From NCBI GenBank assembly GCA_964017235.1, contig OZ024933.1:61176255-61240254 (forward strand): a stretch of 64,000 nt of DNA. The letters run 5' to 3'. The notes beneath the pieces are model-generated. The model ran no database searches. It had not been told where the DNA came from and saw only the letters and a program-made list of their open reading frames with translations. Position 1 is the first letter of the stretch, and every line of letters starts with the position of its first letter. This DNA is from Sabellastarte sp. h YS-2021 (taxonomy: Eukaryota > Annelida > Polychaeta > Sabellida > Sabellidae). Made by a program: the position numbers and the translations under genes. Shown piece by piece: positions 11,059 to 60,685 of this stretch.

Positions 11059-12041
11059 CTAGAAGTGAGGGGGGATTGTGGAGGCAAAGGTCTGGGGAAT
11101 AACTGAGGCTGCCATGGAGGCATTTTTGAGGTAGGTCCAAACAGCAGAGCTTCGACAGAGGCCATGAGCCATGATGTTTTGTAAAGGAACATTGTGGTTG
11201 AAGGCATATGTGGCCCCAGACCTTCTGAATGTATGGAATCCATGACCTTGCAGATGTATATTTCTAGAGGTCAAAATGGTTTTCAATGCAGCTTTAATGT
11301 GTGTGTCGATTATCTGGACAAAAGGATAGAAGTTATTAGCAAAAAGGGGTGCTGAAGGAGGAAGTGGCCTGGATGCAAAGAGATTCCTGAGTGCCCTGAC
11401 AGGGCACAGGTATATGTTTTTTGACTGGAAGTTGGATGATGTGATATGATTTGGAATCCTGAAGAGTTTTTGTCCATTTGATGATCAGGTGAGCAGATTG
11501 GTTATCAAAAACTAGGTGGTTCCTTAAGCAATGCCTTCTAGGATCAAATTTTTTGGTACTATGAGGGGCAATGTTTGACATCCTAAGAAATCCATAGAAT
11601 GCTGTTAAAAATATGGCTCTGAACAATAAGGGATCAGACAGCATATCACAGCTGATGGAAATGAGGTATAAGGTTCTACTGTTAAATATACCCCTTGGGG
11701 TTGGGAGAAATTGTGAATTAATGGATATGCTTCGAATGTACCTAGAGATAGAGCTGTCTAACAGTGAAGAATCAGGTAGGTGGTAGTATTTAGCCATTGA
11801 TGTAATTGAAGACAAGTAATTTTTTATAACTTTAGGAGAGAGGTCATTTTTGTATAAGTATTCCAGAAAAACTAAGATGTTATGTACAGTCAGAGTTACA
11901 GGCAGACCCATGAATATCATGAATGCTAAAAAAGTTCTAAAATGTCTGTAATGGGCTTCAGTGGTCGAGGGTCTGTATGTCTTCTGTATTCTAGCCCAAG
12001 CTGATTCCAATAGAGGGTGAGTCTGTGGGTTCGAACCTGAA
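11059..12041 (-). pseudogene. DIRS-type tyrosine recombinase (one frameshift)
   Basis: The minus-strand frame ending at 11336 holds an N-terminal core-binding region (LLESAWARIQKTYRPSTTEA, then FLAFMIFMGLPVTL) and the first catalytic arginine motif (AFYGFLRMSNIAP). A frameshift at about 11290-11340 moves to a second frame carrying GHGFHTFRRSGATYAF and GLCRSSAVWTYL. These supply the HxxR box and the tyrosine nucleophile typical of DIRS recombinases, so all key residues are visible across two frames. The protein would join the element's circular DNA to the genome. The frameshift makes this copy inactive unless it is a sequencing error. Confidence 0.88.
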
Positions 12042-12042
12042 A

Positions 12043-13793
12043 TCAGAATTGTAAATCCAAACTGAAGTATTGCATAGGAACAACGTCCCAAATATAGTTT
12101 TGTTTTAGATTTTCAAGTAAATGGCTATCTGCCTGTTTATCTGAGTACATTCTTGATAAGAGATCCGCCTCAATATTTTTACTGCCTTGAATATGTTCAA
12201 CTTGGATCCTTATATCATAGTGGGCACTTACAAGCCATATATTCCTAATACACGCAGCCAAACAAGGGTATTTGGTTTTGCTGGTTGTAACCACTGAACC
12301 ACCGCTTGGTTGTCACAGAAGATGTTTACTATTGAATGCTTCCAAAATTTTGCCCATAGTCTTAAAGCTATCAGAATGTTTATCATTTCAAGATGGACGA
12401 TTTTGAGGTCAAATCCAGGTATAGCCAGGATAGGGGAGCTATAAACCCTGTTGGACCAAATGCCTCCCAGACCTGTGAGGCAAGCATCCAGATGAAGGGT
12501 ATCTTGGTGGGGCAAGCTTAACTTGTGGAAGAATGTAATGCCATTAAAGTCTGGCAAAAATTTTTGAAACCATTTAATATCAAGGAAAAATTCAGGGGTG
12601 AGTTTTATTCTTTTCTTGCCAGCATTGGTTCTAAATAGGTAAAGGATCCTGTTTATAAAGATTCTGGCTGGGTGGACATATTTGTGGATGTATAGTAGCT
12701 TGCCTAAAAGAGACTGAAATTTGTGACGACTAGGGTATTTGAACTGGAGGGTGAGACAACATACCTGGTGGATTGTATATAATTTCTTCTGATCTATAGC
12801 GAGGGTGGAGTTGCCAATGTTAATGGAGATACCCAAGCATGTGAGCTCAGTAGTTGGTGGATCTACCTTATCTGGGTTTACTGATAGCCCTAGATCTGTA
12901 ATAAGGTCATAAAGTGCCTTAAAATATTGTTGCCCTTTTGATCTAGTGCAAACCCCCACAAAATCATCAATGTATGCGAAAATTTTGCAGGCCAAGTTAG
13001 CCATGATATGGACAATGGTGTCTGCCGCCATCTGGAAAGATCCGGATCCATGGATCCACCCAAACACGATTCCTAGATCCAGATAGAAGTCATTTCCCCA
13101 TTTAAGGCCAAATTTCAGAGCATCTCTGGGGTCTACCCTTAAGTTTCGGAATGCCCTTGAAATGTCAATCTTAAATATCACTGGATCTTCAGTAGCTAAA
13201 ATGGCTGTAACAATATCATCAATAGTTGAGAACAGAAGGGTAAATGATCTGTTGTCAAATGCTTTTTTATCAACATGGTCATTAAGAGAACTACCCTCGG
13301 GGTGCGAAAGATTCATTATAACCCTTCTTTTGCCATTGTCTTTTGGCCTGGTGAGCATGGGTGAACAATAAAACCTCGGATCAGGAATTTTTTGGAAGGG
13401 ACCAATCATAGCTCCAGCCTTACATTCTGTGTCGAGATACTGTTCAATTGATTGTGGGTATTGAAGGGCTGATGCATGGTTAATGACACTAGTGTCATTT
13501 AGTTCATCTGGATCCGATAATGAGAGGGGAAACCCAAATTTTAGATACTGAAATAAACATTGATCATGATAATCAGCCAGATATTTCTGCCAAACTTCTA
13601 GATTAAGATCAGATATTAAAGGTAGTCTGGCTGCAGCATAGTTAGGTTTGCCTGTTCGTTGTATTAATTTGGCGATAGCAACACATTGATTTATATCTGA
13701 AATTAAAACTGACTCCCTATCAGGGCTGATGAATGTGAACTCTGCTTTACCATGATTAAAAAAACCTTGACTTATCAGGGCAATTACTATCAA
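12043..13793 (-). pseudogene. DIRS-type reverse transcriptase-RNase H (one frameshift)
   Basis: A 521-residue minus-strand frame (13793-12228) carries RVIMNLSHPEGSSLND, FKIDISRAFRNLRVDP, the catalytic FAYIDDFVG box, and GLSVNPDKVDPPTTELTCLG. These are the reverse transcriptase palm blocks in the DIRS-specific form. RNase H follows: LHLDACLTGLGG, HLEMINILIALRLW and IFCDNQAVVQWL. The end of RNase H (NIEADLLSRM) lies in another frame at 12294-12043, so one frameshift near 12230-12290 breaks the protein. It overlaps the recombinase frame downstream, as usual in these elements. Confidence 0.9.
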
Positions 13794-13992
13794 TACTAAC
13801 TTTAGTAACTTCAGCCTGATAAGTGTTAGAGTCTACCTCTTGCATTCCTGATAACAAATCAGGATGAGTAACCCCTGGATTATTAAGTGAGAGAGACGTA
13901 AATGTGACGGTGTCGGGAAACGATGGTTCGACACAGTTGGCTTGACCAATAAGCGTATCCACAATGTTCTCCATATATGTTGTATAAGACAT
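13756..13992 (-). pseudogene. Short frame upstream of reverse transcriptase
   Basis: A 78-residue frame starts MSYTTYMENIVDTLIGQ and overlaps the start of the reverse transcriptase frame by about 38 bp in a different frame. It probably belongs to the same polyprotein, N-terminal to the reverse transcriptase. No domain was recognised. Confidence 0.45.
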
Positions 13993-14021
13993 GTTAAAAT
14001 AAGTTCTTGTCTGGTAATCTT

Positions 14022-14828
14022 TTAAGTAGTCTTGGTATGCATTTTTTGGAGAAAATTACTAGCAAATTCAACTAAGTACATGTCCATGGAGTGGGAGACC
14101 TGCAAAAACCCTTGAGGGACAGAGTTACATTTAAACAAGCTGTTTTCCCCTGCCCCCGTTGACAAGTAATACCAGCCCCATAGATCATCTTGCACTGATG
14201 CATGAATAAAGATAAGGGCTAATGTGTCAGTTACATACTCGTCTATTGCAGTAAAAATATCTACTTTATGTTTACATCCCCACTGCATTGATTCATGAGC
14301 AGTATGGCCCAAGGGGTTCCAAGCAGGGCTCCCATGCCTCCCCAGGCTACCTGTTAAATGATTATTGGCGTCTCGCACCCAAGTGGGAGCATCATTATTG
14401 CTTCCACTAAAATTATCAAAATTTTTGCTGTTTTTAAGCACTGTGTCTATGACAACATAGCATGGCATAGCAATTTGTTGAAATTCCTTATAACTGCTGA
14501 CATTTTGATAGTCATCATAATCTGTATTTACAAAACCACGATTCAGGCCATGATTATCTATAGGTGAATAACTAATTTTTGATGAACTTACCAAAGTGTT
14601 ATTAATCGCCAACGTAGTGTCAGATCCTGAATCGTGATTACATGGCAATGCAAAAGATATATTAATATGTTCACAATACATGTTAAAAGTATCACATTCA
14701 TCTATATCATTACAGTCAAATTTCTTCTTATCTGCATTGTCAAATGTCTTATTGATATCTATAAAAGTGTTAATTACCCTATCTACATGGGTGATAACTC
14801 CATTAACAGTGGCTTCAGGTGGCACCAC
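14022..14828 (-). pseudogene. Unknown protein between gag and RT of the Ngaro-like element
   Basis: This 268-codon open stretch is in the same frame as the gag zinc-finger part and is separated from it by one amber stop at 14837-14835. It is rich in Asp and Asn (for example KKFDCNDIDECDTFNMYCEH). Its C-terminal half has APTWVRDANNHLTGSLGRHG and WGCKHKVDIFTAIDEYV. I recognise neither the SGNH-hydrolase motifs of many Ngaro elements nor the methyltransferase motifs of DIRS1. It may be the C-terminal part of gag or a separate accessory protein. Confidence 0.5.
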
Positions 14829-14837
14829 GCATCCCTA

Positions 14838-15990
14838 TCTATCAATAGATTTGTCCTGTCCTCGTTTGAAGTTGCACTTAATTTCTTGGTGGTTCAAATT
14901 CCTCCCCTGGCGAGCACAGTATGAGCAAACATGCTTGTAATTGCCATGATTGGCATCATGTGAACACTGACCGTCGTTATAATATTTGCAGATTCTTTTC
15001 TGTTGTTGATGCTGAGGAAGGACTTGTGAGTTGACCAGTGAAATTTGGGATGAAGATAATCTGTTTATGGACCACTGCATTGAATCATGCCAAGAAAGTG
15101 TGCCCTGCTCGATTTCATGCATTGAGATGGCCCATGCTGATCTGACGGTTGCCCATGGAAGTGACACTGCATCCTTAAGTGATAAAATGACCTGAAGAAG
15201 TGCGTTTTTTGCAGTGGTTTGGTCCTGGATTTGTAAGATATTTGACAGCTGCCCAGCAGCCCATTCTGGGAGCGTCAGATCATCAAAAGCTACCTTCCTT
15301 CTACCATGGTAACCCTCATTAGCCCATCTACGCTCAGGGATAGCAGTAACAGTGTCAGTTGTATTGAATCTGCCAGATTTTCGTGAGGTGTTCTACCTTG
15401 AGTAGCTTTAACTTGTGATCTTCCTTCATATGACGCTAGAATACCATTCACTGCCTGCAAAATGATTGGGTTATGCCTTAGTGCGTCAAGTCCAGGAAGG
15501 ATAGCATTCCTGTGACTTGCACCGCCCACAGGGTCTTGCAAGGAAGTTCTAGATGTTCCTGCTATCGGATGGGTGATGTGCATCCCTGTACCGACTTGCC
15601 TCATATCAGTTGCTGTTGGGTTCAAGTCTGCCAAAGCGTCACCTCTTGTGTTGATGTGATGCCCCTGTGGGACGGTCGATTCGATGGAATGTGATTTCGA
15701 GCTTCTAGGGGTTGAACTAATGGAGTGGCCCTCTAGGTTGTCAACACGCTTTATAAGTTCTTGGTTCGAACTGTCAATTTTTTTCAGATATGCAAGAATT
15801 TCACCATTGGAACTTTGCTGTGAATCAGTGGAAATTACTTCATCAGCTAGGAAAGTAGTTACTGGCTTCTTTGGTACTTTGATATATGAACCAGTAAGAT
15901 CTGAATTGTCCACTGATGTCCTTGCCCGAGCCGACACTGTCACACGCTTTCTTGAGGCTGTTACTGGTGTTTTCTTCTTGTTTCCCGTTA
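14838..15990 (-). pseudogene. Gag-like protein with CCHC-like zinc finger
   Basis: The N-terminal part (about 15990-15290) is basic, then has a likely coiled-coil stretch (NGEILAYLKKIDSSNQELIK, then RVDNLEGH). After a frame change between 15290 and 15167 the second part contains WDSM-like sequence SWHDSMQWSI and a Cys/His cluster, CKYYNDGQCSHDANHGNY followed by CSYCARQGRN and a final NHQEIKC. Such a Cys/His cluster sits at the C-terminus of gag-like proteins in DIRS-order elements and is taken to bind RNA. A clear ATG start was not found. The frame change and amber stop mark it as a pseudogene. Confidence 0.7.
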
Positions 15991-16098
15991 TTATTTTCCA
16001 GTTAATACAACAATGTAAAAGTTTTGTTAAAACACTAAAAATATTATTATAAAATCCTCTTTAAATCCGTTACATAAAATCCTTGTGTTACATAAGAA

Positions 16099-16303: not shown

Positions 16304-16590
16304 TACTGGCTCATATCGTCATCATTGCCTTTGGACCCAAAACTCGTGTGACATTCAACACTTATTTATCCTTTTTGAAATTTATATTTTTTAAGTCTGC
16401 AGTTTAATGCCAGTTAATGTGTACAAAATACAGTTAATGTGACCTTTGTTGATTGTCCCTTATGTCTTCTTATTCAGTCAACAACGTGATTACCAGTATA
16501 GTGACACTATGGTACATTATAATAGTTGTACACTTATGAAAAACACATTTGCTTTGCTAAAAAAATTATTGATTCTATGGTTATCATTAG

Positions 16591-16725
16591 CATCTGAGAA
16601 ACCAGGTTCCTGCCGAAGACCTGTGCGATTTGGACCATGTGTGGATCGCTGTTCTGGTGATGATACTTGCCCAGGTATTCAGAAATGCTGCTCCAATGGA
16701 TGTGGCCATATGTGTATGAACCCAA
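16591..16725 (+). CDS. WAP-domain exon, copy 3 of 3
   Basis: A 135-nt exon lies between acceptor ATTAG (16586-16590) and donor GTAAGT (16726), phase 1 on both sides. It encodes [30 protein letters not shown] and MNP, keeping the eight WAP cysteines. The preceding intron carries the Ngaro-like element. An ATG at 16538 is in frame with this exon and would add a hydrophobic leader ([15 protein letters not shown]), so an alternative reading as a first exon is possible. The acceptor shared with the other copies makes the internal-exon reading more likely. No following exon was recognised. Confidence 0.82.
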
Positions 16726-16850
16726 GTAAGTATTTGATAAAGAAGAAAGGTGAACCTAAGGTCAGGGGTGCGAGAATAGGTTATCTACCTAGAAATATAT
16801 TGGTATGTCTGTAGTGAACATGCAGAAGACCTAGCTTTAAAATAATTCAT

Positions 16851-17290: not shown

Positions 17291-19040
17291 TTTTGGTTTG
17301 TGAATTTTAGTTACAACTTGACAACTTCTTGGACAGCCTGGTCAGCAGAATGCGGCCTATACAACTCCCACTTTAATTACCACAGTGGAATCAGAGGTAC
17401 AGTCAACTTCTAGTACCTTCTTCAAACCCACCAGTGTGGAAACAATACAGTCTAGTAACACGAAACTAGTCAACCCGGGAAGTCAAACAGACATCTGTAC
17501 TCTTCCAGCTATGAAAATGCCTGTCCACGTAAGCACCACTACCACACCTAAATTCTTCAAGGATAAGTGTCAACAGTTCCAGGTTGAAAAAATGGACATT
17601 AACACTTCTCCACACATCAAGATGGTCAATCACACCAAGATCTTACAAGGCTGAGACTCACCAGACATCAGCCCTCCCCTCACTCCTGATCTGGGTATAC
17701 CCAGTGAATATCAGGCACGAATCTGTGCATTGAACTTGCCAGATATTTTACCAGTGAATATTAAGCACGAATCTGTGCCTGGAAGTTACCTGAGGAAGAT
17801 TGCTACCAAGGACCCTCATACTCCATTACTGATGATGATCCTCTTCCACCCCACCTATCAGACACACAATTGAAGTGGGGACAAACCACCAAGCATCAGT
17901 GGCAACAAGAGTTTGGACTACTGAATTATCTAGAGAATATGTGTGCTAATATCAACCCCCCCCCCCCCCCCCCCCATCAACAGACTTTGATGGACTTTAA
18001 TCCACACTTATACTGATAAGTAATTAATTATCAATTAATTTCTTATATGACAATAACAATTGTCTATTCCAAATTTTAATCATCCAATTTGATAATTAAG
18101 CTAATACATTTTATATACCATTTAAGTATTGTTATATCGCTTATATCACTATCTGATCATTAAATGCACTATTAGTGGCAATTTTTGGAAAATAAGATTT
18201 TTTTCTTCATATACTTTATTTTAGGTTTGACACTTTAAAACCATCTTAATATAAAGTTAAAAGGGTGATTAATATGATATCTTGATTTCACCCAGTTATT
18301 TAATCAATAACACCTTTTAAATCAAGATTTTGTACAACTACCCCGAACTGCTAATTTGCCTTTTTTGCTGGAAAATCACGTCATTTTTCACATATTGCCA
18401 AATATCAACAAGGGCTAACACAAAATCTTCGAGCTAATATCAATTTTGACTTAATCAATTGATACATGAACTTCCAGTTGAAGTCTTTGGTATATACTGG
18501 TCACTAACTGGTTTGAGACATTTCTATCAAACATAGATGCGAGTCTGAGTATAGTACAATCACACACATCTAAGTGAGTTATAATAACCTGAAATTAGCG
18601 CGTTTGCATGTCTAGTACATCAACAACTGAACAATTGCTATCAAGTACCCAGAAGTCCAGACTAGCTATTGAGACAAATTAATGACTCAAGGTCCCAGTT
18701 GATATCTAACGGAGATAATAAGTTCTTGCCACCCACTATCCTACAGGACATAAATACCATAATCAAGACTGCCAAATCAATACTTAACACAGGAATAGTA
18801 TTGATTCAGTTAAAGTTGCTTTTATACTTTTATGTGCCTTCTCATGGAACATACTGACTTCTTAGATAAATAATCTAATTTTAAATCATTTTAATCCCAA
18901 TTTAACATAAAAAATTGAGATAATAGCTCTAATCCTCCCGATCCTCCATTTAGAGGCTCAATCCGGCGGATGATCAGTTCAAATTAGCGGATCATAGGGG
19001 ATAGGTATAATGCACCTTAGGACAAATGTGGGATGGATCT
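17291..19040. other. Unassigned DNA with a Ser/Thr-rich frame and a C run
   Basis: An 89-codon + strand frame (17385-17654) is Ser/Thr-rich and matches nothing I recognise. A near-repeat of GTGAATAT..GCACGAATCTGTGC occurs at about 17705 and 17755. An uninterrupted run of C lies at 17956-17975. From 18000 to about 18950 the DNA is AT-rich with no recognised feature. Part of this may be the 5' region of the Penelope-like element that follows. Confidence 0.4.
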
Positions 19041-19110
19041 TCAGCCTCTGATGAGAAAATTCAAATAATTTTCGAAATATTGCCAGCCATCTTGGTCAAT
19101 ATAGGGCAGG
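19041..19110 (+). ncRNA. Hammerhead ribozyme (type I) before a Penelope-like element
   Basis: The full catalytic core is present: CTGATGA at 19048-19054, a perfect 7-bp stem II (19055-19061 with 19067-19073, loop CAAAT), GAAA at 19074-19077, and stem III pairing TATTG (19078-19082) with CAATA (19097-19101). Its closing pair is A19077-T19102. The base before the predicted cleavage is A19103, and stem I pairs GCCT (19044-19047) with GGGC (19104-19107). Hammerhead motifs are known in Penelope-like retroelements, and this one lies about 60 bp upstream of such an element's coding remnant on the same strand. Cleavage is predicted between 19103 and 19104. Confidence 0.85.
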
Positions 19111-19170
19111 TTATCTGAGGGAATAACTACTTAGTTACTGACACCAGCACTTCTACTTACTTATTTATCT

Positions 19171-21590
19171 ATGGGTAATATGAGTGTCAGTGACACAGCT
19201 CTGTCTGCTGAATTTACTAACCTTGAGGTGAAAAGTGCAAGTACTTTCAACACATCCTTGAGTGGAACACCCATACCCACCACCACCAAGAGTAGTGAAA
19301 CAGTGTCACTACTTGATGATGTTGCCAATAGACTGAAAGATCCTGTGTCAAAGCAAGGTAAATGACTAAAAAGGAAGAGACTCCAGTCACCAGCGGCTTC
19401 GTCAGACAATTGAGGGGACTACCCAGTTGCCTCTAAACCCCTGTACCTAAAGGCCAAAACTCTGTACAGAAAGAAGCTCAATTTGGCTACCAACATCCAG
19501 TCAATCAAGAACAGTGTCAAGGTAGGCACATTCCCTGTACAGTGCAACTTTTGGAGCACCCCACCAGTCAGCACAGATGAAGACTTCAAGAAAAAGTAGG
19601 GGGCTCGGTGGTGTAGCGGTTAGAGTTCTTGCCTCCAACCTCTGAGGCCGCCAGTTTGAATCTCGGGCTGGGATCATAGCAGATAGGTAAATCACACTTC
19701 AGACCCCCATCCTTTACTTCCATTGTTCCACATTTTAAATGGTGGCAACTCCTAACATGAATCAGATTCTTGAACAAATCAAGGAGGAGGCTAATATAGC
19801 CTCTCTGGGGATTCTCCCCAAAGGGAAATCCATGGACAGTCTTATAGGTCACACAATCATCAACCTGTCTGACACCACTCTAACTGAGGCCCGGTTTCAG
19901 CCCTAGAGAAAGGATTAACTTTTTGTCCTACACCCCCCAAATTAGCAAAGTAGTAGATGAACATATTAAAGAATATGTTCCCAAAACTAAGTCTTACATC
20001 AGAGACACTCAGGATTTTAGCAATAAAATAATAGCCCGGGGACCTATTCCTGAAGGAGCCATTTTATGCACTTTAGATGTATCCTCCCTATACACCAATA
20101 TTCCCAACAATGAAGGAATATTAGCAGTAGCGGCTAAACTGAGACAGGACCCCACAAAGGGACCAATAGTTAATTTCATACTAGACTTACTTAAACTAGT
20201 ATTGCACAGTATGAACTTTACTTTCAACGGAGACCACTACCTACAAACAGGAAGCACGGCCGTGGGCACAGCCTTAGCCCCTAACTATGCTAACCTGTTT
20301 ATGGATAGATTTCAGACAAAGGCTTTGGATGGTTACCCACTCAAACCACTAACATGGAAACGCTTCATTGATGAAATTTTCATGATTTGGGCTCATGGAG
20401 AAGATTCTTTGATCAAATTCATAGAAAACTAAAACTTCTTACATGAAATCATTAAGTTCACACATGGAATGAGCTATACTCAAATTGACTTTCTAGACAA
20501 AACTGTCAAATTTACTCAGGGTAGGGGACTTATCACCACCCTGTATAACAAGCCCACAGCCACTCATCTGTATCTGGAACACTCATGAGCACATCCCAAT
20601 AGCATCCTAACCAAAGGACCCTATGGGCAATATCTCAGACTAAGGAGAATTTGTACACTAGATACTGACTTTGAGCTAAATGCCAAAAAACTTACTAGTT
20701 ATTAACTCAAAAGAGGTTATTCATTTCCCTCTCTGAAAAACACTATCGCAGAGCAAGGAAATTTAGCCAAGATGAATTGCTTGACACTGTCCCCCATCTA
20801 CAACAGATTTACCTGTCATGGTTACCCAATTTAACCCAAGGAATCCCAAAATAGGTTCTCTGGTCAAGGATAACTGGAACACACTAAAATCTTCAAAACC
20901 AACCACTAGTAGGTTATAGGAGATTACCAAAATCTCAAAGACATGCTTACAAGTAGCAGCATAGCCATATCCACCAGTACCAAAACCTCTGGTACCCCCT
21001 ACCTAGTTTTTACCTATTTGCACCAGATTGGGTAGATGCACCTACTGCCCCAAAATTGAGAAACTGGAAGAAATAACCAGTTTCCACACCAAGAAAATAT
21101 TTAAATTTCAGGCACTCCCACCCAAGCAAAAGATCACTTGTGAACTCTCTAATGCAATTTATATTATAAATTGCAACCGATGTGGTCTCCAATACACTGG
21201 AGAAAGCAAAAGGCCATTTTGAAACAGGATTTATGAACACTACAGCAGTGTTTAGAAATTCCAGCCTGAAAAGGCGACTCCAGTTTTGAGGCATTTCACA
21301 GAGAAAAATCATTCTGTGAAAAACACGGAATTCAGCATCTTACATTGGATGGGGGATCCAAGAGGCCCAAATGCAACCACCAGGCGCAACTATATTATAT
21401 TTGGGCATTCCCTACACTCCTCCCTGCAGGCATCAACTTGTTTGTATGAAGCTATGCCCTCTCATAGCACCCCTTACCCAGGTGCAACTTTCCCTTTATA
21501 TTCCCTTTATATTTTTAGTTACAAGATAGCTTGGGCTACTAGTGGAGTCAAGATGGGTCAGATAACACTTTCTGTCTTGTAGTAAATGAG
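19171..21590 (+). pseudogene. Decayed Penelope-like element (RT plus GIY-YIG)
   Basis: The longest intact frame (19923-20432) contains VDEHIKEYVPKTKSYIRDT, the reverse transcriptase block LCTLDVSSLYTNIPNNEGI, TGSTAVGTALAPNYANLFM, and FIDEIFMIW at the catalytic box, where the family norm is YIDDIFFIW. Further RT and thumb pieces continue with stops to about 20900. At 21028-21222 a Cys-rich link (GRCTYCP) leads into NAIYIINCNRCGLQYTGES, the GIY-YIG endonuclease core, and later HFTEKNHSV. The N-terminal part from 19171 is broken by a SINE at 19600. This is an endonuclease-bearing Penelope-like element of the Neptune/Poseidon/Penelope type, inactive through many stops. Confidence 0.88.
19600..19740 (+). 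mobile_element. tRNA-derived SINE head inside the Penelope-like element
   Basis: Box A-like TGGTGTAGCGG (about 19611) and box B-like AGTTTGAATCTC (about 19652) surround the CCTCTGAGG signature seen at 2984 and 29126. The copy interrupts the N-terminal coding remnant of the Penelope-like element, so it arrived later. The right end is approximate. Confidence 0.7.
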
Positions 21591-21899: not shown

Positions 21900-22263
21900 A
21901 GCCCCTAATAGGACATGGTAAAATAAAAATTGCACCATGTATTAAGTTGTGCACACAAGATGATCTCATGATAACGAGAAAATAAGTCGTGATTATGAGA
22001 TGATCTCATTATAATGAGATAATAAGTCGTGATAACAAGATCATCTCATGATATAAAGATGATCTGGTGATAATGAGATCATCTTGTGATATCAAGATCA
22101 TCTTGTGGTAACAAGATCATCTCGTTATCACAAGTTATTTTCTTGTGATAATGAAATAATCTCATTAGCACCACTTGTTTTCTTGATATCATAAGATCAT
22201 CTGGTGCACACAATTTAATACATTTTAATGCAATTTTTATTTTACCATGTCCTATTAGGGGCT
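21900..22263. mobile_element. MITE, 364 bp, made of repeated GATCATCT words
   Basis: About 35-bp terminal inverted repeats begin AGCCCCTAATAGGACATGG at 21900 and end as the complement at 22263. ACAG flanks both ends (21896-21899 and 22264-22267), a likely 4-bp target duplication. Between the TIRs the sequence is largely built from variants of AAGATGATCTCATGATAACG and its complement, so the transcript or single strand would fold on itself. No coding capacity. Confidence 0.8.
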
Positions 22264-22604: not shown

Positions 22605-22760
22605 ATAGGAATAAAAGACATATTCGAGTGCTTTATGATGGTTTTAAACTATCGAGCGGCTGTATTAAAGCCACAAAGCCCGAAGGGCTGAGTGCTTTAA
22701 TACAGCAGATCGATAGTTTAAAACCATCATAAAGCACGAGAATTTGTCTTTTATTCCTAT
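22605..22760. repeat. Long hairpin (about 70-bp arms)
   Basis: The left arm starts ATAGGAATAAAAGAC and includes GTGCTTTATGATGGTTTTAA. The right arm returns the complement and ends GTCTTTTATTCCTAT. The tip is AGCCCGAAGGGCT. Such a structure could be a foldback element or a paired transposon end. A similar but unrelated hairpin lies at 49989-50131. Confidence 0.8.
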
Positions 22761-23171
22761 TCTAAAATGGTTACACTAATATTTTGGTCAAAATAGGCAG
22801 TAAATCTTACGCAAAATTCAAAACAAATCCAGCGCCATGTTGGCTGTTTCATTAATTAAACGTGCTTAGTGATGGATGTGCAAACAGCCTTTTGGTTAAA
22901 ATCCCCCACAGAATTCTGTAATGTCATATTTATGAGTAGTCGATCTTTAAATGAAATATTGATAAAAATCCCCACTGAATTATTTAACTCTATATTTGCT
23001 GCATATAATTTTACGTTTTATTTTACCGTGAGTGGTTTGTTTACATTTGTACGCGAAGGGATGATGTACGTAGAATTCAACAGCGTTACTTTATTTACCG
23101 TTCTATATTCGCGATTTCTGAATTGCGCAAAAGACGTGCCCAAGGTCACTGCGCAGCCTACCATTTTAGAA
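22758..23171. mobile_element. Possible MITE bounded by 13-bp inverted repeats
   Basis: ATTCTAAAATGGT near 22758 is the exact complement of ACCATTTTAGAAT near 23159-23171. The segment between has no recognised gene. It adjoins the long hairpin, and the two may be parts of one element. No clear target duplication was seen. Confidence 0.45.
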
Positions 23172-28928: not shown

Positions 28929-29126
28929 TAGATTTATTTGTTGTTTTACGTCGCGTTCAACGGGTAGTTTAAAGGTGGAGGAAACCAGTGCATACTGCAC
29001 TGTAAACCACCAGACATCGGCAAGTAACTACCAACTTTCCAACATGAAGCGCTCGGCCCGAGATTCGAACCGGCTGCCTCAGAGGTTGAAGGTGAGAACT
29101 TTAACCACTACACCACCGAGCCCCCT
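28929..29126 (-). mobile_element. Full tRNA-derived SINE with 13-bp target duplication
   Basis: On the minus strand it starts GGGGGCTCGGTGGTGTAGTG (box A), continues to a box B GGTTCGAATC, then a body with GGTAGTTACTTGCCG and CTGGTTTCCTCCACC, and ends GCGACGTAAAACAACAAATA. TTTCAAGGTTTGG flanks it at 28916-28928 and 29127-29139. This copy links the heads at 2984 and 19600 with the tail at 5080 as one family. Confidence 0.88.
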
Positions 29127-57579: not shown

Positions 57580-58141
57580 TGTTCCACCAAAAGATTAAGC
57601 CCCGATCCTGTCTGGGACCCTTAATCGTGCACAGTCGGTGGAAAAAAGACAAAAATGGGCGGGAATACTGGGTCGGTACTGAAGTCTGGGATTAAGAACA
57701 GATCGTCCCCAGGACGCCTCAGGACGCCTCGGGCGGCCCCAGACAGTCCCCGACTGGTCTGGGACTAAGAACCGACTAAGCCAGTTTTCAGGTCGGTTTC
57801 AACCACGATCCTGTCGTACACATACCAACTGGGCCGACTAAGCCCCGACTAACCCACGATTGTTCCACCAAAAGATTAAGCCCCGATCCTGTCTGGGACC
57901 CTTAATCGTGCACAGTCGGTGGAAAAAAGACAAAAATGGGCGGGAATACTGGGTCGGTACTGAAGTCTGGGATTAAGAACAGATCGTCCCCAGGACGCCT
58001 CAGGACGCCTCGGGCGGCCCCAGACAGTCCCCGACTGGTCTGGGACTAAGAACCGACTAAGCCAGTTTTCAGGTCGGTTTCAACCACGATCCTGTCGTAC
58101 ACATACCAACTGGGCCGACTAAGCCCCGACTAACCCACGAT
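57580..58141. repeat. 281-bp tandem duplication of the Harbinger left end
   Basis: 57580-57860 and 57861-58141 appear identical by eye, each beginning with the TIR start TGTTCCACCA. The lack of visible differences points to a recent event. Both copies contain GTCTGGGACTAAGAACCGAC-type subterminal motifs. Confidence 0.93.
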
Positions 58142-58238
58142 TAACTGCCGGCGTCCTCAGGCGTCCTCAGGCCTCCTCAGTCTTCCCCAGACCAGGATCG
58201 CCGATTCTTGTTTTCCAAAGTTGCTGGAATTTCTGGGT

Positions 58239-59880: not shown

Positions 59881-60685
59881 CCCAACAAACAGACAAACCC
59901 ACTGTTAAACAAAAGCCAAACACAAAGTCACACATAATATCCGAAATTGAATTATTTTTTTATATATTTTGAAATCCACATCATAATTTCACCAATTTTT
60001 TTTTGTTCATGGCTTGGAAATTTATTTGTAGCAGAAAGGTTTTCATGGAAATCTTCAATTTTAAATCTTCACTTCTAATCACAAAAATGTGGAAAATATA
60101 ACCATGGAACTAGTTTTGCTTTCAATAATGGGGGATTGTGTTTGCAAAATAGTTTGTCAGTTTGTTGGCATGGGTTCTATTTAATTTTGGGTTTTTGTGT
60201 TTCTTGGTTGGTGGTTACTGGGGTTGGGTTTATCATTGGTAGTTGGATGTTGGGTTTCTTACTGGGTTTGTTATTTGGGGGTTATGTTTGGTATTGAGTT
60301 TGTCTGTTTGTGGGTTGGCAAGTATGTAATAATCACTTTTAACTCTAGGGAAGGTGTAAGTGTTGGACTTTTCAGTTACAGATTTTAAACTATCCCATGG
60401 ATTTTACTCTAAAAATGGGCTGATTAATGGCCATATTGGGAGTTATTTTTATTTTTTTTTATGTGGCCTTTTTTGTTATGTGTGGTACCATGGGTTATTT
60501 GTTTCATGTTTGGGGTGGTGTAAGTGTTGGACTTGAACTTTTTTTTTCTTGTGATAAGTATTTGTACTGAACTTTTTTGTTTGGGGAGGGGAATTGGAAT
60601 AACATGTAGCTGAATAATTGTTTTTGGAAGATTTGGTGGCCCTGAAAAGGGCCTGGCAGGTCAAAGACCCGCCCTGACTGGATGG
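59881..60685. other. Harbinger inter-gene spacer
   Basis: T- and G-rich DNA between the convergent genes. No further gene was recognised. It must hold the 3' end of the minus-strand Myb/SANT transcript. Confidence 0.5.

What the first reader, a model, noticed from the sequence alone, without database searches (positions are those of the whole stretch)
19041..19110. Complete hammerhead ribozyme core upstream of a Penelope-like element
Every conserved core base is present (CTGATGA, GAAA, A-T closing pair, H = A at the cleavage site). Stem II is a perfect 7-bp helix, stem III is 5 bp, and stem I pairs across the cleavage site. Hammerheads are an established feature of Penelope-like elements; finding an unmutated core beside an otherwise badly decayed coding region suggests either recent loss of the ORF or retained ribozyme function. 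A second copy, expected in the downstream pseudo-LTR, was not found.
Basis: partly seen in the sequence, partly recalled or inferred. Interest (0 to 1): 0.7.

Follow-up and report, generated by a model that had tools for sequence, protein, structure and literature searches.

The report
Hammerhead ribozyme in a Penelope retroelement
The sequence is a real self-cleaving-RNA motif inside an old jumping gene of an animal-sized genome, and some other copies of that jumping gene begin where this RNA should cut itself, which hints at what the motif is for.

Summary
Confirmed and extended. Window 19041-19110 is a type I hammerhead: intact core, 4-bp stem I, 7-bp stem II, and a bulged 10-pair stem III (longer than reported). 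A descriptor scan finds no other in 64 kb. Rfam misses it, but it recurs in sister copies with the core best conserved and is the best conserved stretch of the 1,071 nt compared between subfamilies.

It lies in a decayed Penelope-like element, 17317-21512, flanked by a 12-bp target duplication, which explains the missing downstream copy.

The new result concerns 5' ends. Of 66 copies sampled with DNA downstream of the ribozyme, 37 run through it and 29 are truncated within -125..+100; 8 of the 29 begin within 5 nt of the predicted scissile bond (p 5e-5; 1.6e-3 without the two copies that raised the idea). Two of the 8, L023 and L055, are complete insertions with 13- and 16-bp target duplications. 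I read this as ribozyme cleavage setting the 5' end of some templates. Polymerase stalling or a promoter start there is not excluded. Published Penelope hammerheads are described as minimal, lacking helix III, with unknown role.

The parts
17305..17316 (+). left target-site duplication TTTTAGTTACAA
   Evidence: exact 12-nt match with 21513-21524
17317..19170 (+). 5' pseudo-LTR of the element
   Evidence: begins next to the target duplication; homology of copies L009 and L019 starts at 17318; 3' limit approximate
19041..19110 (+). type I hammerhead ribozyme
19044..19047 (+). stem I, 5' strand (partner 19104-19107)
19048..19054 (+). conserved core CTGATGA
19055..19073 (+). stem-loop II, 7 bp; pair 19060-19068 is T-A or A-T among copies (compensatory); the innermost pair is lost in many copies
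19074..19077 (+). conserved core GAAA (last A pairs with T19102)
19077..19102 (+). stem-loop III, 10 pairs with one bulge
19103..19104 (+). predicted scissile bond, between A19103 and G19104
   Evidence: hammerhead rule (recalled); 8 of 29 truncated copies begin within 5 nt of it
19104..19170 (+). tail region, AC-rich; in 11 other copies with target duplications the insertion ends about 55-63 nt after the scissile bond
19171..21490 (+). decayed Penelope-type ORF, broken by stops and an internal gap/insertion; first ATGs at 19171 (not kept in several copies) and 19180
19884..20432 (+). reverse transcriptase fragment
   Evidence: RVT_1 E 3.7e-4, 20.7 bits, below cutoff 29.6
21007..21222 (+). GIY-YIG endonuclease fragment
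   Evidence: no Pfam GIY-YIG match itself; related pieces of L013 and L012 give PF01541 22.7 and 19.8 bits, cutoff 22.6
19598..19670 (+). SINE-like repeat inside the ORF
   Evidence: 89% inverted match at 29056-29126; no tRNA gene called
21513..21524 (+). right target-site duplication TTTTAGTTACAA

Best explanation
A Penelope-like element family (622 first-look candidates, 40 scored) carries a complete type I hammerhead at the end of its pseudo-LTR, with the cut 67-76 nt before the first ATGs of its ORF. Shown: motif, recurrence, conservation, element boundaries, 3' ends of 11 target-duplicated insertions about 55-63 nt past the scissile bond, and an excess of 5' ends at the scissile bond. Inferred: transcripts that run through the pseudo-LTR are cut by the ribozyme between 19103 and 19104; the 3' product (start of tail, ORF, and in some a second pseudo-LTR) then serves as template, so the new copy begins at the cut. 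Uncut transcripts are also used, since 37 of 66 sampled copies, the window's included, run through the ribozyme. Because helix III is complete, the ribozyme should be able to cut as a monomer without a tandem partner.
For: Core and stems. 75 matches in 87 held sources (22 of the sequences built the model), 52 of 75 with intact core; conservation over 61 distinct rows: core 0.964, paired 0.931, 5' flank 0.801, loops 0.761. Identity between rows of different subfamilies: ribozyme 0.885, the 100 nt upstream 0.785, 19111-19158 0.747, ORF start 0.812; of 1,002 windows of 70 nt only 3, starting at 19040-19042, reach it. 5' edges: all 66 distinct places examined; 37 through, 29 truncated, 8 within -5..+5: L057 -5, L076 -3, L029 -2, L083 -2, L055 0, L101 0, L054 +1, L023 +3; uniform-model p 5e-5, 3e-5 on the side not biased by the query, 1.7e-4 if L076 and L101 count once, 9e-4 to 1.6e-3 without L023 and L029, which raised the idea. 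Target duplications make L023 (13 bp) and L055 (16 bp) complete insertions; in L055 two head-to-head arms meet at the cut with 7 nt between them. In L077 an inverted tail arm ends exactly at the first base of the 3' product (read by eye).
Against: No cleavage was measured. Rfam does not recognise the motif. Only one base pair shows compensatory change, and the number of pairs changed on both sides does not exceed shuffles. Folding energy is ordinary. Four of the eight edges lie 2-5 nt upstream of the bond and need chance or microhomology in the AT-rich ATATA. No target duplication was found for L054, L071, L076, L077 and L083 with the flanks fetched, nor for L029; none was sought for L057 and L101. 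Inverted tail arms of L054 and L081 end near +24, not at the cut (by eye). A second cluster of edges at +49..+58 has no ribozyme explanation. In the anole element, ribozyme mutants did not change insertion in vitro and no reads ended at the cut (PMC11167929).
Confidence: 0.58

Rival explanations
1. The 5' ends pile up because reverse transcriptase stalls at the folded ribozyme; the RNA is never cut.
For: The ribozyme has three helices and truncations are common in this family (29 of 66).
Against: A stall should fall just 3' of stem I (offset +4 or more, inference); 7 of the 8 edges lie at +1 or further in.
Confidence: 0.2
2. The position is the element's transcription start, so templates begin there whether or not the RNA cuts itself.
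For: The stretch CAATATAAGGC is AT-rich and a bdelloid pseudo-LTR has a putative TATA box and initiator (PMC3846280, passages seen).
Against: The edges coincide with a bond predicted from the hammerhead rule; 37 of 66 copies carry sequence upstream of it.
Confidence: 0.13
3. The ribozyme serves RNA circularisation, as in animal retrozymes, and linear 5' ends are a side product.
For: Animal retrozymes carry type I hammerheads, and Penelope elements are proposed as their helpers (PMC7761336, passages). Short derivatives lacking the RT region are amplified here.
Against: No short tandem arrays with the motif were seen in the 36 loci of 6-10 kb.
Confidence: 0.05
4. The motif is a decayed or chance look-alike without activity in any copy.
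For: Rfam negative; ordinary folding energy.
Against: Chance scan, core conservation over subfamilies, 5' ends at the bond.
Confidence: 0.04

Closest known systems
Minimal type I hammerheads of Penelope-like elements (Cervera and De la Pena 2014, Luense 2017: neither held; described in PMC7761336 and PMC6155905, passages seen)
   Same: Type I hammerhead in the pseudo-LTR of a Penelope-like element
   Different: The known ones are described as lacking helix III or the loop-loop contact and as cleaving as dimers in tandem; here helix III has 10 pairs, 98% of cells paired, and the window insertion has one ribozyme only
PAc, Poseidon of Anolis carolinensis (PMC11167929, main-text section read)
   Same: Hammerhead at the pseudo-LTR/ORF border; insertions end in an AC-rich stretch near the ORF start
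   Different: In PAc the cut lies 26 bp inside the ORF, only stems I and II are named, cleavage needed the protein, and no reads were found at the cut; here genomic 5' ends lie at the cut, 67-76 nt before the first ATGs
Bdelloid Penelope families (PMC3846280, passages seen)
   Same: Inverted and direct pseudo-LTRs, tail, target duplications, head-to-head junctions
   Different: There palindromes at the inverted junctions were put down to self-priming; here some junctions fall at the hammerhead cut
Terminons, telomeric Penelope relatives (PMC6431247, passages seen)
   Same: Hammerhead near the 3' end; its cleavage was suggested there to preprocess RNA templates, the same idea as here
   Different: No footprint of cleavage in genomic ends is given in the passages seen
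Animal retrozymes (PMC7229834, passages seen)
   Same: Type I hammerheads in animal genomes, a mussel's among them; non-autonomous spread
   Different: Retrozymes are short tandem non-coding repeats; this is a coding element with an RT-deleted derivative

Membership tests
Type I hammerhead ribozyme | Conserved core CUGANGA ... GAAA ... UH (recalled rule) | tested here: met
Type I hammerhead ribozyme | Three helices around the core, stem I open-ended | tested here: met
Type I hammerhead ribozyme | Match to the Rfam hammerhead models | tested here: not met
Type I hammerhead ribozyme | Compensatory changes in the stems | tested here: inconclusive
   one pair only, in 17 of 41 distinct rows and 16 of 61
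Type I hammerhead ribozyme | Self-cleavage | not testable with these tools
   indirect: 5' ends at the bond
Type I hammerhead ribozyme | Loop I-loop II tertiary contact | not tested
   outer stem I pairs appear in the 81-nt window fold; not analysed
Penelope-like element | Telomerase-like reverse transcriptase | tested here: inconclusive
   RVT_1 below cutoff, E 3.7e-4; Penelope-type motifs recalled; no RT phylogeny made
Penelope-like element | GIY-YIG endonuclease | tested here: met
   one of two sister pieces reaches the cutoff: L013 22.7 bits vs 22.6, L012 19.8; the window piece itself no match
Penelope-like element | Pseudo-LTRs in direct or inverted arrangement, tail, target duplication | tested here: met
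   L023 direct; nine with an inverted ORF end at the outer side, of which L032 and L040 also hold a direct copy; target duplications of 13-17 bp; window copy has one pseudo-LTR
Minimal Penelope hammerhead | Lacks helix III | tested here: not met
   10-pair helix III, 98% of cells paired
Retrozyme | Short (150-400 bp) tandem non-coding repeats with a hammerhead | tested here: not met
   4.2-kb element with ORF, single ribozyme

The most novel reading that the evidence does not exclude
Hammerhead self-cleavage in the pseudo-LTR sets the 5' end of the RNA template of a Penelope-like element. Genomic insertions, including a target-duplicated head-to-head one whose two arms meet at the cut, would then be a footprint of what Penelope ribozymes do in vivo and would explain part of the inverted junctions of these elements.
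Probability: 0.46. Interest if true: 0.8.

Novelty: new variant of a known kind. Interest (0 to 1): 0.6.

Why it matters
[quoted passage not shown] A large family in which some copies begin at the scissile bond makes the question testable from genome sequence, by the same junction count in other genomes. The complete helix III suggests an element whose ribozyme needs no tandem partner.

Tried and rejected
Second hammerhead in the window: none found. 22778-22800 looked like a partial repeat of 19092-19108, by eye only, and was dropped. Solved-structure and NCBIfam searches with the RT and endonuclease pieces gave nothing useful. Rfam on sister copies: none. The genome-wide search with the Rfam hammerhead family did not complete, so other hammerhead families in this genome are unknown. 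An independent replicate of the 5'-end count with another subfamily (L060:102-181) did not complete either. One search scored a missing subfamily as a mismatch, so its low values outside the ribozyme were partly an artefact; redid it counting only rows with letters, and only those numbers are used. An exact repeat in L033 lies away from the tail and was not counted. L036 carried an informative truncation but was not in the lists, so it was left out. The BLAST edge caller picked spurious short matches for L057, L062, L080 and L083 and was replaced by the aligner; that caller places L071 at +21, where reading by eye gives +8, and its calls for L022, L034 and L056 look like reference divergence; all were kept as called in the 29. 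L067 and L085 are identical and both counted.

Full report
Observation. A descriptor scan of both strands finds one hammerhead in 64 kb; 60 Markov sequences gave one hit at the loosest setting and none at the stricter ones. Rfam finds no hammerhead here.

Element. The window lies in a genome of 1.79 Gb, so the motif could be compared with copies. The 101-base ribozyme region gave 40 scored matches of 622 first-look candidates; 36 loci were fetched. Comparing the surroundings shows a Penelope-like layout: a pseudo-LTR of about 1.85 kb with the ribozyme near its end, an ORF with first ATGs at 19171 and 19180, a reverse transcriptase fragment, a GIY-YIG region (seen in sister copies) and an end near 21500. 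The window copy, 17317-21512, lies between 12-bp target duplications, so I take it as a complete insertion that never had a downstream pseudo-LTR. Its ORF is broken by stops and holds a SINE-like repeat.

Insertion types. Of 41 sister copies in the alignment, 24 that seemed to end in a tail were tested for exact repeats: 10 have 13-17 bp target duplications at the tail. Six loci were extended upstream for this, and one more (L019) showed one. Nine of these 11 have the ORF end inverted at the outer 5' side and the pseudo-LTR, ribozyme and tail in direct orientation. One (L041) is a truncated pseudo-LTR, and one (L023) is direct: cut site, shortened ORF, pseudo-LTR with ribozyme, tail. The tail ends about 55-63 nt after the scissile bond, past an AC-rich stretch, recalling the anole element (PMC11167929). 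Thirteen of 36 loci share one internal deletion, window 19389 joined to about 21190, which removes the reverse transcriptase; L031 has another junction. The derivative has spread with the ribozyme.

Conservation. Over 42 sequences 26 have an intact core; over 75 matches in 87 held sources, 52. These sources were fetched by similarity, so they are not an independent find. Stems pair in 95-96% of cells, against 28-53% when slid. One pair of stem II is T-A or A-T (17 of 41 distinct rows); no other pair changes on both sides, so the covariation evidence is modest. The innermost pair of stem II is unpaired in 34 of 61 rows. Between rows of different subfamilies the ribozyme is 0.885 identical, against 0.63-0.79 upstream, 0.747 just downstream and 0.812 in the ORF start, and is the most conserved stretch of the 1,071 nt compared (23 sequences). 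Single copies decay in the ordinary way: the window copy differs at one site of 101 from the majority of 14 window-like rows.

5' ends. After L023 and L029 were seen to have ends beside the predicted cut, the test was set in the notebook: do 5' ends pile up there? Three searches with DNA downstream of the ribozyme (40 scored candidates each, 40, 41 and 43 rows) gave 66 distinct places; all 66 were examined (windows; 16 in earlier loci). By one automatic caller 37 run through and 29 are truncated in -125..+100; 8 of 29 fall within -5..+5. A uniform model expects 1.4 (p 5e-5). On the side that the query cannot bias, 8 of 17 (p 3e-5), and 7 of 16 if L076 and L101, of one subfamily, count once (1.7e-4). 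Without L023 and L029 it is 6 of 27 (1.6e-3) or 6 of 15 (9e-4). L055 has a 16-bp target duplication, its last 5 bases shared with the tail, around two head-to-head arms, tail-to-cut and cut-to-ORF-end, with 7 nt between them. By eye, inverted tail arms in L055 and L077 end at -2 and exactly at the bond; those of L054 and L081 end near +24. A second cluster of edges lies at the tail itself (+49 to +58).

Mechanism. The simplest reading is that a share of element transcripts is cut by the ribozyme and the 3' product is then copied. Stalling of the polymerase and a transcription start at the same place remain possible and are listed as rivals. No RNA was examined.

Known context. Reviews describe Penelope hammerheads as minimal variants lacking helix III or the tertiary contacts, in tandem, possibly cleaving as dimers, and of unknown role (PMC7761336, PMC6155905; passages). 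Another review suggests that cleavage may preprocess RNA templates (PMC6431247, passage), so the idea itself is not new. The anole study saw no RNA ends at the cut and no effect of ribozyme mutants on insertion in vitro. Searches joining Penelope, hammerhead and related terms listed no paper that by title, start of abstract or the passages read reports genomic 5' ends at the cleavage site; the two primary papers on Penelope hammerheads were not held.

Noticed in passing
window 11336-16060, minus strand: Reverse transcriptase (RVT_1 44 bits) followed by a phage-integrase-like N-terminal domain (below cutoff), as in tyrosine-recombinase (DIRS/Ngaro-like, recalled) retroelements.
   Followed up: no
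window 16443-16814, plus strand: WAP four-disulfide-core domain (46 bits), perhaps a host gene exon or remnant, just upstream of the Penelope-like insertion.
   Followed up: no
window 21900-22263: Perfect 35-nt inverted ends around 294 nt of repeat-rich DNA, like a small non-autonomous DNA transposon.
   Followed up: no
window 22605-22760: Hairpin with 67-nt arms, 93% complementary, loop 22 nt.
   Followed up: no
window 57580-58142: Two copies of a 281-bp unit in tandem at 100% matches.
   Followed up: no
window 60613-60658, minus strand: Histone 3' UTR stem-loop above the Rfam threshold, pointing to a histone gene.
   Followed up: no
L072-L075, L089-L092, L102, L103, L107-L109: Many nearly identical copies of one ribozyme-bearing subfamily, which suggests recent spread.
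   Followed up: partly
5' edges at +49 to +58 (L063, L067/L085, L077, L080, L082): A second cluster of 5' truncations at the tail site, where other copies have their 3' ends.
   Followed up: no
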